DNA of 64,000 bases from Mycobacterium basiliense (GTDB lineage Bacteria; Actinomycetota; Actinomycetes; Mycobacteriales; Mycobacteriaceae), in NCBI RefSeq assembly GCF_900292015.1, contig NZ_LR130759.1, forward strand, positions 434,001 to 498,000, written 5' to 3'. Within the stretch, counting starts at the first letter, position 1. Each line of letters begins with the position of its first letter. Positions 8,868 to 12,411 of the stretch are shown here, piece by piece. The translations under genes and the position numbers were made by a program. Under the pieces are notes generated by a model. It was given only the letters and a program-made list of their open reading frames with translations. It did not search any database and was not told where the DNA came from.

Positions 8868-9404
<537 letters not shown>

Positions 9405-9639
9405 ACAGTCGGACTCAAGTTTGATCTTCCGTGTTCGCCTTGCGGCGTGCGGATCAGCGATTGGGTGACATTACGGCACGTTTCGGAGCACCGATCTTGA
9501 GCTCATCCTGCCGATCCCGAAAGGGGCTACTTTCGGCCAACGCGGACCGGAGTCGGCCGGGAAATGACAAGTTATCGAGACCAATCACGCCTGCGCGCAT
9601 TACTATCCTACTTTGCGTCGTGCCATGTGGGAGGTGCCG

Positions 9640-10950
9640 ATGGGATTCGATCGGGGCGACACCGACCCGACTCCCCGCGGCACCGACGATGTCAGACCTT
9701 GGCGCTCGAATAGGTCGTCGGGAGGGGAAAATTCGTCCAGATTGCTGCTGCGGCCAGTGGATTGGCTTAGGCCCGCCATGGATAGCGAAAACCGTTTTGA
9801 GCGACGACTTCTGTTCGAAAATTTCACGATCGCCGGTTTCAAGGAATTGCGGGCCGATCTGGAAGATGAGCTTCGACGTTCGCCGACGGACACCGCCCGG
9901 TATCAGCTCGCGACCGTCTTAGCGCAATGCATGCCCGACCAGCATTCCTTGGCGCGTGCGGAGGAGCTGCTCGCTGGTGCGACGGGTCGGGGCAACGATC
10001 TTCCGCCGAGTCTGCGAGCGGCGGCCCGAGACGTCCAGCGCAGCGTTCGGTCAATGCTTCTCGAATCGGAATCGCCAAGTAGTGGCCGGCTAGCTCAGGT
10101 CAATTGGGGGATCTATAACCGCTGCCCTTTGGTGTGCGTGGGCTGCTACAACATCTTCAATTCCGACCAACTTTCGCTGCGGGAGGCCAAGGCGTCGGTA
10201 GAGAAGCTGGCCCGCGCCGGTGTGGAGGAATTGGTGATATCCGGTGGCGATCCGCTCGAATGGGAAGGAATTCTCCCCTTTGTCGATCATGCGTATGACT
10301 GCGGACTCGACGTCGCTCTCGACACGGTCGGCTATAGCTTCACCGCAGCCACGGCCGCTGCCCTCAGCGGCAAGGTCTCCTATCTGGGCCTGCCGGTCGA
10401 TGGATCGGGCCAGGACATGATTGCGGACTTCCGCAAGGGCAAGAACGATCTGCTGGTGCGTGTTCGGGGTGCTCTTGAACTCTGCGGTGAATTTGGGATC
10501 CCCGTAAAAGTGAACACGACGGTGACCAAGGGCAACATTGATGACTTGGAAGATGTGGCGCAGCTGCTTTGTCAATATGAGGCGGTCGTGAGCTGGTCGC
10601 TGTTTCAGTGGTGGGATCTGCGGAGAACTCCGGCGTTGCGAGAGCGAATGCATGTAGAGCGAGACCGTTTTCGTGAACGAACCTTGCGGCTGAGCCTGGC
10701 CTACCCGAGCCTGGGAATCTGGAGTCAGGACGTTAGCCGACGGGCGCGGACGCATTTCTTTATCTCGGCTAACGGTGAAGTCTACACATTCGATTCGGGC
10801 AGTCTTTCGACCATTATTCTCGGAGATATACGCGCTCAGAGTATGAGCGAATTGATCGGATCGCCAGCATTGCGGAAGAACTCTCCAAAGTTCTCCCGCT
10901 CCTTTCCGATCCCGCCCGTTGTGAAGGCAACCCTATTGGCCAACAGGTAG
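9640..10950 (+). CDS. Radical SAM enzyme without SPASM domain, viperin-like core
   Basis: The 436-residue protein has a helical N-terminal region (about 45-150) that looks TPR-like, then a radical SAM core beginning VNWGIYNRCPLVCVGCYN (about 157-175). The CxxxCxxC motif ligates the [4Fe-4S] cluster; ELVISGGDP follows as the SAM-binding GGE-type strand. No cysteine cluster follows, so there is no SPASM or twitch auxiliary cluster. VPVKVNTT-like and SWSLFQWWDL stretches plus HFFISANGEVYTFD near the end resemble the layout of viperin nucleotide dehydratases, by eye only. ATG at 9640 follows GGGAGG at 6 bases; TTG at 9613 is possible. It lies 6 bases before an MFS gene and appears less GC-rich than its neighbours. 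Substrate unknown. Confidence 0.85.
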   Translation: MGFDRGDTDPTPRGTDDVRPWRSNRSSGGENSSRLLLRPVDWLRPAMDSENRFERRLLFENFTIAGFKELRADLEDELRRSPTDTARYQLATVLAQCMPDQHSLARAEELLAGATGRGNDLPPSLRAAARDVQRSVRSMLLESESPSSGRLAQVNWGIYNRCPLVCVGCYNIFNSDQLSLREAKASVEKLARAGVEELVISGGDPLEWEGILPFVDHAYDCGLDVALDTVGYSFTAATAAALSGKVSYLGLPVDGSGQDMIADFRKGKNDLLVRVRGALELCGEFGIPVKVNTTVTKGNIDDLEDVAQLLCQYEAVVSWSLFQWWDLRRTPALRERMHVERDRFRERTLRLSLAYPSLGIWSQDVSRRARTHFFISANGEVYTFDSGSLSTIILGDIRAQSMSELIGSPALRKNSPKFSRSFPIPPVVKATLLANR

Positions 10951-10956
10951 CCGGGG

Positions 10957-12207
10957 GTGGTCGAAGCGGCGAGTTCGGCGGGCCACGTCGATGGCACGAG
11001 CAAGCGCGTTTTATGGTTGATAATCACGCAGAGTGGCTTCTACCGCACCGCACTTCAGCTCGGAAATATCCCGATCGTTTTGCCGTTTGTGGTGGCCGAG
11101 CTCCATGCCGAGTTGTGGATGGCCGCCCTAATTTTTCCGTCATTCACAGCCGGTACGGCAATTGGGAATATGATCGCACCGGCCGTGCTTGCTGCCGTCC
11201 CACGACGTGGTCGACTGGTAATTATCGTGCTCGGTTTGGCCGTCCTCGCTGGCGTCAATGCATTGTGCGCCACCATCGGCGACGGAAACGAAGCCGGAAT
11301 CGTCTTTCTAGTAAATGTGGTTCTGATCGGGGCGGTGTCGGCTTTTTCTTTCGTTGCGTTCGCAGATTTGGTGGCAGCGATGCCGTCAGGAACCGATAGA
11401 GCCCAGGTTCTGCTTACCGAGGCAGGAGTGGGCGCAGGCCTGACGGCGGTGGTAACGGTGGCATTGTCATTCGTGCCGCACGACGACGCATTGACGAACA
11501 ACACTCGTCTGTTGTGGACGGCAACCGCTGCGATGGCCATTTCAGGGCTGATGTGCCTGGGTGTGCCGCACCGGATCGTGCCCCACATCCACGCGGCGCC
11601 CGGCCTGCACAAAGTCGTGCACGTTGGTTGGGCGACTGTGCGAAGTGATGGCTGGTATCGCCGTTACCTGGCCGTCCAGCTGCTGTTCGGATCGGTGGTA
11701 ATTGGGTCCTCGTTTTACAGCATCCGTGTTGCCGCGGCACCGGGGGACGAGCATGACCACGTTGTCGTGGTTGTGCTGTTCGTCTGCGTGGGACTTCTGG
11801 GTGGGATTCGGTTGTGGAATCGGACCCGCCAGAGGTTCGGCCTGGTTGGTTTGTTTGTGGGTAGCGCGATTGTCAGCATCGTCGCCGCAGCGGTGGCGAT
11901 CGGATTCCAGTTGGCCGGATCCTGGCCCAACATCGTGGCCATCAGCCTGGTGATCGCCCTGGCATCGATCGCCAATCAAAGCGTGTTCACGGCGGGTCAA
12001 CTCTGGATTGCCCACGATGCCGACCCGGCGCTGCGCGTTTCCCTTATCGCCTTCGGGCAACTCGTGATCAGTATTGGCTTGGTGGGTCTGAGTTCGTTGC
12101 TGGGCATGTTCGCCCAGTTTCACGATGTGGTGTGGCCCGTGGTGATCGTGCTGCTGCTCAATGTGGTGGCGGCGCACTCGGCGAGACGACTGGCTCCCGC
12201 CAACTGA
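10957..12207 (+). CDS. MFS-type integral membrane transporter (Rv0246-like)
   Basis: The 416-residue protein has about twelve hydrophobic helices in two halves separated by a hydrophilic loop (around residue 205-225). This is the major facilitator layout. It starts with GTG at 10957, only 6 bases after the radical SAM stop, so the two genes are almost certainly one transcript. From memory, H37Rv keeps a homologue (Rv0246) next to Rv0245 but without the radical SAM gene. Classical MFS motif A is not obvious, so it may belong to a divergent branch. A natural inference is that it exports the radical SAM product or imports its substrate; nothing in the sequence names the compound. Confidence 0.82.
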   Translation: MVEAASSAGHVDGTSKRVLWLIITQSGFYRTALQLGNIPIVLPFVVAELHAELWMAALIFPSFTAGTAIGNMIAPAVLAAVPRRGRLVIIVLGLAVLAGVNALCATIGDGNEAGIVFLVNVVLIGAVSAFSFVAFADLVAAMPSGTDRAQVLLTEAGVGAGLTAVVTVALSFVPHDDALTNNTRLLWTATAAMAISGLMCLGVPHRIVPHIHAAPGLHKVVHVGWATVRSDGWYRRYLAVQLLFGSVVIGSSFYSIRVAAAPGDEHDHVVVVVLFVCVGLLGGIRLWNRTRQRFGLVGLFVGSAIVSIVAAAVAIGFQLAGSWPNIVAISLVIALASIANQSVFTAGQLWIAHDADPALRVSLIAFGQLVISIGLVGLSSLLGMFAQFHDVVWPVVIVLLLNVVAAHSARRLAPAN

Positions 12208-12255
12208 CGACGCCGTGGCCGGCGCGCAACAGTGCGTCACCACCGCGATTTTCCC

Positions 12256-12411
12256 TTACGGACGGTCCCCGAGTTTGTTTCGGTAGCCCGCGATGCGCCG
12301 CTCGATCTCGGCGGCGTCATCGAGTCGGCCTTCCTTGCGCGCGAGTTCGGCGCGCACGGTCAGCTCGCGGATCGCGGTTCGGATGTCGCTGGTGCTCGTC
12401 GCTTTTCGCAT
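12256..12411 (-). CDS. Small 51-residue charged helical protein
   Basis: An ATG at 12411 opens a 51-codon frame ending in TAA at 12256. It starts MRKATSTSDIRTAIRE and is rich in Ala, Arg and Glu, with a strong helical pattern (ELARKEGRLDDAAEIERRI). No signal peptide or membrane segment is visible. The composition, third-position GC bias and clean boundaries look like a real gene, although it is below usual annotation size. An alternative GTG start lies two codons upstream; neither has a strong ribosome binding site. It sits between the convergent MFS gene (stop at 12207) and sdhB on its own strand, 57 bases beyond the sdhB stop. I do not recognise a function. Confidence 0.55.
   Translation of the reverse strand: MRKATSTSDIRTAIRELTVRAELARKEGRLDDAAEIERRIAGYRNKLGDRP

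What the first reader, a model, noticed from the sequence alone, without database searches (positions are those of the whole stretch)
9640..12207. Radical SAM-MFS gene pair of unknown product inserted in a conserved mycobacterial block
A SPASM-free radical SAM enzyme (CxxxCxxC at about residue 165, GGDP strand, helical N-terminal extension) sits 6 bases before an MFS transporter. The H37Rv order I remember has only the transporter homologue (Rv0246) next to Rv0245. The C-terminal layout (FQWWDL, HFFISANGEVYTFD) resembles viperin-type nucleotide dehydratases by eye. The pair reads as a make-and-export unit for a small molecule. No peptide precursor frame is convincing in 9405-9639. The enzyme gene also looks lower in GC than its neighbours. 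This is my best candidate for an undescribed system in the window.
Basis: partly seen in the sequence, partly recalled or inferred. Interest (0 to 1): 0.75.

Follow-up and report, generated by a model that had tools for sequence, protein, structure and literature searches.

The report
Rare radical-SAM enzyme beside a transporter
A few mycobacteria carry a two-gene unit that pairs a very rare, undescribed radical-SAM enzyme with a membrane transporter; it is real and under selection, but what it makes is unknown.

Summary
An intact radical SAM gene (9640-10950) lies 6 bp before an MFS-type gene (10957-12207), between Rv0245 and sdhB homologues that lie within about 400 bp of each other in 16 of 18 other Mycobacterium junctions. 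M. simulans, M. szulgai and M. angelicum carry the same pair in the same place. dN/dS is about 0.1-0.2 for both genes.

The enzyme reaches no NCBIfam cut-off in the rows shown. Eighteen family members were recovered from a 5.8-billion-protein set; 7 of 297 Mycobacterium genomes have it (one broken), as does one Rickettsiaceae MAG. It has one cluster motif, a private helical N-terminal domain, and a cysteine-free SPASM-like C-terminus.

It is not a viperin: 50 bits against a cut-off of 180, and outside the viperin clade. Its C-terminal module matches a family with deoxynucleoside-kinase neighbours and an unnamed group, not NirJ, PqqE or TIGR04053; its core alone is nearer NirJ. A nucleotide-like substrate is a fair guess, no more.

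"Make-and-export unit" is plausible but unproven. The enzyme occurs without this transporter in M. persicum, G221 and the MAG; genome G236 kept the transporter and lost most of the enzyme gene.

The parts
9640..10950 (+). radical SAM enzyme gene, 436 aa
   Evidence: Pfam Radical_SAM 7.9e-13; 18-member family; dN/dS 0.12-0.19 in 10 pairs of Mycobacterium copies
9748..10089 (+). N-terminal helical domain, about residues 37-150, particular to the family; helical and TPR-like only by eye
   Evidence: conserved in A2; no hhalign match to the five other radical SAM profiles tried; weak TPR hits, two models, 1 of 18 members each
10123..10146 (+). CxxxCxxC radical SAM cluster motif, residues 162-169
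   Evidence: cysteines invariant in all 18 rows
10591..10947 (+). C-terminal module, residues 318-436, SPASM-like without cysteines
   Evidence: hhalign probability: family with kinase neighbours 96.4%, relB 85.3%, viperin 12.6%, NirJ group 8.6%, TIGR04053 group 4.1%, PqqE 0.2%
10957..12207 (+). MFS-type transporter gene, 416 aa
   Evidence: PF07690 24.8 bits, below cut-off; 11 hydrophobic segments; match at E<=1e-70 in 5 of 396 Mycobacterium genomes
9600..9634 (+). conserved upstream block: TTACTA (9600-9605) and RBS-like GGGAGG (9629-9634); promoter role is inference
   Evidence: alignment of 5 loci
9405..12256 (.). approximate extent present here and absent from pair-less relatives
   Evidence: homology resumes at window 12254-12260 in 8 of 9 short pair-less gaps compared; the ninth (L064) shows none there, and the IS-bearing gap L063 matches from 12198

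Best explanation
The pair is an accessory two-gene operon. The enzyme is a single-cluster radical SAM enzyme of an undescribed family: it cleaves SAM to a 5'-deoxyadenosyl radical at the one cluster and acts on a small, probably anionic molecule held under the cysteine-free C-terminal module, with the helical N-terminal domain giving specificity. A nucleotide-like substrate is my first guess. The downstream MFS protein probably moves the product or a related molecule across the membrane. Shown: gene structure, family, conservation, purifying selection, and linkage. Inferred: operon transcription, radical chemistry (from the superfamily), substrate class, and any transport link.
For: Core cysteines invariant in 18 of 18 rows. 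Pair co-linear and closely spaced in 4 of 4 Mycobacterium loci found with both genes (6 bp here; about 29 bp in L010; 1-bp overlap in L011 and L012). Of the 5 MFS matches at E<=1e-70 among 396 genomes, 4 have the enzyme upstream and the 5th keeps both ends of the enzyme gene. dN/dS: enzyme 0.12-0.19, MFS 0.08-0.15, 10 pairs each. Three cysteines and the basic residues R56, R161, R265, R328, R368 and K417 are invariant in 17 of 17 rows. C-terminal module shared with a family that lies beside a deoxynucleoside kinase and NudI on E. coli plasmids.
Against: The genes are separable: enzyme without this MFS in M. persicum, G221 and a Rickettsiaceae MAG; MFS without an intact enzyme in G236. No nucleotide gene lies next to the pair. 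For the core domain alone, hhalign ranks relB (score 223.6) and the NirJ group (211.2) above viperin (168.1) and the family with kinase neighbours (140.8). The branch joining the latter family to this one is weak once viperins are included (65/28; 94/87 without them). That family's own C-terminus does not match viperin (0.8%). No structure was obtained.
Confidence: 0.45

Rival explanations
1. Two functionally separate genes that share a promoter: the transporter has its own role and the enzyme another.
For: Each occurs without an intact copy of the other. A paper passage says a M. marinum macrophage infection mutant, mimA, was complemented by Rv0246; Rv0246 would be this MFS if the recalled H37Rv gene order holds.
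Against: The 5 MFS matches at E<=1e-70 among 396 genomes all have the enzyme or its remnant beside them; the close spacing is kept in 4 of 4 loci with both.
Confidence: 0.3
2. A viperin-type nucleotide dehydratase that makes a chain-terminating nucleotide.
For: Best PDB profile matches are viperins; group relB's C-terminus links to viperins (94.6%) and this family's C-terminus links to relB (85.3%); the Rickettsiaceae member reaches 85.5 bits on a PADLOC viperin model.
Against: Below the NCBIfam viperin cut-off, 50 vs 180; outside a 100/100 viperin clade; no kinase neighbour; direct C-terminal match only 12.6%; a NirJ also reaches 74-83 bits on the PADLOC models. An MFS beside a nucleotide triphosphate maker would be unusual (inference).
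Confidence: 0.12
3. A peptide (RiPP) maturase whose precursor is encoded elsewhere.
For: Many SPASM-like radical SAM enzymes modify peptides (known biology); the C-terminus looks like a decayed SPASM fold.
Against: No small ORF shared by all 5 upstream gaps; no peptide-recognition (RRE/PqqD-like) Pfam hit among the 7 families listed for 18 members; no auxiliary-cluster cysteines conserved.
Confidence: 0.1

Closest known systems
Radical SAM family of WP_064562334.1, beside a deoxynucleoside kinase on E. coli plasmids (unnamed)
   Same: Shared C-terminal module (96.4%) and motifs such as TVG, G-P-DG and N/TTV..N
   Different: No helical N-terminal domain; encoded with a kinase and NudI instead of an MFS; separate 100/100 clade; its core is further from this enzyme than NirJ's
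Group relB (P0026-P0031, unnamed; one from an Oligoflexia MAG)
   Same: Nearest clade (80/89); core and C-terminal matches
   Different: About 300 aa, no N-terminal domain; context not seen
Viperin / SAND (radical SAM nucleotide dehydratase)
   Same: Radical SAM core; best PDB profile match
   Different: Below family cut-off; outside the viperin clade
NirJ, TIGR04053, PqqE (SPASM radical SAM proteins)
   Same: Core domain, strong hhalign, NirJ group second only to relB
   Different: C-terminal module unmatched by profile (0.2-8.6%); no cluster cysteines here
Rv0246 / mimA of M. tuberculosis and M. marinum
   Same: Presumed orthologue of the MFS, by recalled gene order
   Different: Recalled to lack the enzyme gene; sequences not compared here

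Membership tests
Radical SAM superfamily | CxxxCxxC motif and Radical_SAM domain above cut-off | tested here: met
   49.3 bits vs 29.5; cysteines invariant in 18 of 18
Viperin (SAND) | NCBIfam NF038283 score at least 180 | tested here: not met
   50.2 bits
Viperin (SAND) | falls inside the viperin clade | tested here: not met
   9 rows (8 annotated viperins and one 79%-identical relative) form a 100/100 clade without it
Viperin (SAND) | makes 3'-deoxy-3',4'-didehydro nucleotides | not testable with these tools
   needs an enzyme assay
SPASM radical SAM proteins | auxiliary-cluster cysteines in the C-terminus | tested here: not met
   only three conserved cysteines, all in the core
RiPP maturase | adjacent precursor peptide gene | tested here: not met
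   no small plus-strand ORF shared by 5 upstream gaps; distant precursors not tested
Major facilitator superfamily | Pfam MFS_1 above cut-off | tested here: inconclusive
   24.8 bits vs 33.4; 11 hydrophobic segments
NCBIfam radical SAM equivalogs | any curated cut-off reached | tested here: not met
   window: none of the 25 rows shown of 31, best 69.5 vs 395; the 18-member scan prints scores only for the first member

The most novel reading that the evidence does not exclude
A new radical SAM chemistry that makes a small nucleotide-like or anionic metabolite, secreted by a dedicated MFS transporter, used by some intracellular bacteria (certain mycobacteria and a Rickettsiaceae lineage) inside host cells, with the transporter being the one behind the mimA infection phenotype.
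Probability: 0.12. Interest if true: 0.8.

Novelty: new variant of a known kind. Interest (0 to 1): 0.45.

Why it matters
It marks a radical SAM family with few known members that reached no curated cut-off in the rows seen, and that shares a C-terminal module with a kinase-linked family and, at one remove, with viperins. If the MFS is the mimA/Rv0246 transporter, its enzyme neighbour would offer a chemical handle on a transporter already tied to macrophage infection; the passages I read state no cargo for it.

Tried and rejected
Viral, phage and plasmid origin: no relative in viral contigs or phages; the plasmid hits (75 records) are all under 60% identity and none covers 80% of the query. 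Relatives of the Rickettsiaceae MAG: 1 of 262 genomes of its order, itself. Group relB in viral contigs: none; in plasmids, 14 distant records, none covering 80%. True viperins in viral contigs: of 25 loci from a pattern scan, 4 hold the motif in a long frame and none looked like viperin by eye; a protein scan gave none. Viperin family in the phylum: 0 of 246, but the control also rang nowhere, so it says nothing. Neighbours of the MFS paralogues (31-36%; loci L055-L060) gave no radical SAM lead that I recognised; these neighbours were not scanned against family libraries. Paper searches gave nothing used. In the first tree I labelled the family with kinase neighbours 'viperin' by mistake; searches corrected this. 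In one search the full-length 'fam' rows (1-1 columns), and the 'l88C fam' and 'relBC fam' rows (stale output), were discarded. One search stopped with an error and was redone. Rows left out of tree 2: 7 of 18 family members (near-duplicates and the truncated P0018), 65 of the 75 proteins, 5 of 14 viperin records, and two references of tree 1 (one long-branched, one of two PqqE). P0018 was also dropped from the hhalign profile and the 17-row counts. The 'nir' profile of 7 rows and 't53' profile of 8 rows mix named and unnamed proteins.

Full report
What is there. The radical SAM gene (9640-10950, 436 aa) and the MFS-type gene (10957-12207, 416 aa) are both intact. The start at 9640 rather than the database's later start is supported by conservation: the start codon aligns in 4 other loci, 3 ATG and 1 GTG, and homologues share the LLRPVDW stretch that the 390-aa version lacks.

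How rare it is. A search of a 5.8-billion-protein set returned 24 proteins at E<=1e-3 (only the 8000 candidates sharing most words were scored), of which 18, the window's own included, match over at least 72% of the query at 35% identity or more. A search with the alignment of these, capped in the same way, gave 14 of the 18 again, one short close relative (P0025, 219 aa) and 8 distant ones. The G091 copy is matched in two adjoining pieces, residues 34-139 and 203-424, so the stretch with the cysteine motif is missing. A scan of one genome for each of 84,980 species found 6 loci: four named Mycobacterium, a Rickettsiaceae MAG (39%), and a weak Methylobacter hit (26%). That scan depends on short conserved patterns and did not list, for example, G221.

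Place in the genome. In M. simulans, M. szulgai and M. angelicum the pair sits where it does here, between the Rv0245 and sdhB homologues (Rv names are recalled). I fetched this junction from 20 further Mycobacterium genomes, picked by me mostly from the upper part of the list of Rv0245 matches. Eighteen reached sdhB: 16 have only a gap of about 8-400 bp between the two matches, one has a decayed MFS tail (L074, G105), and one has unrelated DNA of about 2.4 kb (L063, G074). Two more were fetched because they had an MFS hit at this junction: G064 keeps the last 100 residues of the MFS (L053), and G236 keeps the whole MFS while its enzyme gene retains only the two ends (matches to 9319-9686 and 10848-11120). 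A further MFS fragment, in G026, lies elsewhere in that genome. In 8 of 9 short pair-less gaps compared, homology to the window resumes at 12254-12260, just past the MFS; L064 shows none there. I cannot tell insertion followed by repeated loss from an older shared pair with loss; the relics show that loss has happened more than once.

The genes travel apart too. In M. persicum the enzyme lies elsewhere, beside a PE gene and a HerA-like gene, without this MFS; a different MFS-like protein (PF11700, PF07690) lies about 1.7 kb away on the other strand. G221 looks the same by the first residues of its neighbours, which I did not scan. In the Rickettsiaceae MAG the enzyme stands alone between gyrB- and topA-type genes. 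The MFS orthologue (79-83%, E<=1e-70) occurs in 5 of 396 Mycobacterium genomes, each with the enzyme or its remnant upstream; the enzyme itself was searched in 297 genomes.

What the enzyme is. In the single-sequence scan the best NCBIfam scores (TIGR04053 69.5, NirJ2 67.1, viperin 50.2 bits) are far below cut-offs of 395, 500 and 180, and none of the 25 rows shown of 31 reaches its cut-off. In a tree of 53 rows the family is one clade (100/99); viperins are another (100/100); the family's nearest group is six unnamed proteins, relB (80/89), and the tie of both to the family with kinase neighbours is weak (65/28). Without viperins that tie had 94/87. By profile comparison the C-terminal module matches the family with kinase neighbours (96.4%) and relB (85.3%), much less viperin (12.6%), the NirJ group (8.6%), the TIGR04053 group (4.1%) and PqqE (0.2%); relB's module in turn matches viperin's (94.6%), but that of the family with kinase neighbours does not (0.8%). 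The core alone ranks otherwise: relB 223.6, NirJ group 211.2, viperin 168.1, TIGR04053 group 163.8, family with kinase neighbours 140.8, PqqE 113.8 (all). These are one-against-one comparisons of small profiles and give a ranking, not calibrated tests. The radical SAM gene with kinase neighbours lies beside a deoxynucleoside kinase and nudI on E. coli plasmids (regions seen; a third by listing); I did not see the neighbours of the other members. A viperin of Nostoc also lies beside a deoxynucleoside kinase. This is why I lean to a nucleotide-like substrate; it is inference.

Selection. Pairwise dN/dS is 0.12-0.19 for the enzyme (10 pairs, 5 copies) and 0.08-0.15 for the MFS (10 pairs, 5 copies); many dS values exceed 1 and are rough.

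Literature. For Rv0246 with 'mycobacterium' the library holds 4 papers. [quoted passage not shown] marinum mutants, mimA among them, as defective for infection of macrophages, and say mimA was complemented by Rv0246, restoring killing of C. elegans. That mimA or Rv0246 is this MFS rests on recalled gene order. Searches for a description of the enzyme family gave none that I recognised in the listings; most subscription journals are not held. For viperin I saw passages of PMC9642334 and PMC11185175.

Verdict. A genuine, rare, selected two-gene unit whose enzyme family reached no curated cut-off in the rows seen. The viperin reading is right as distant kinship, by way of relB, and wrong as membership. 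The make-and-export reading is the best single guess but the separable distribution weakens it.

Noticed in passing
window 12259-12411, - strand: A 51-residue ORF (contains RTAIREL.VRAELA.KEGR) found by a motif search in 11 of 25 relatives' loci, also where the pair is absent, and not in L010-L012; it suggests a small conserved mycobacterial protein.
   Followed up: partly
L088:5968-7965: A three-gene cassette, radical SAM + deoxynucleoside kinase + NudI, on E. coli plasmids; at least 80% of it in 2 of 5426 E. coli genomes at near identity. It is below the viperin cut-off (85 vs 180 bits) yet has a viperin-like gene partner.
   Followed up: partly
L063:2581-5007: About 2.4 kb of unrelated DNA at the same junction in G074; by eye it encodes a serine-recombinase-like and a TnpB-like protein, as in IS607-type elements.
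   Followed up: no
G300:C173:73186-73926 (M. szulgai): A second, distant match to the family profile (positions 135-360, E 9.4e-31) in M. szulgai.
   Followed up: no
P0026-P0031: An unnamed group of about 290-330-aa radical SAM proteins (one from an Oligoflexia MAG) that links this family and viperins by the C-terminal module.
   Followed up: partly
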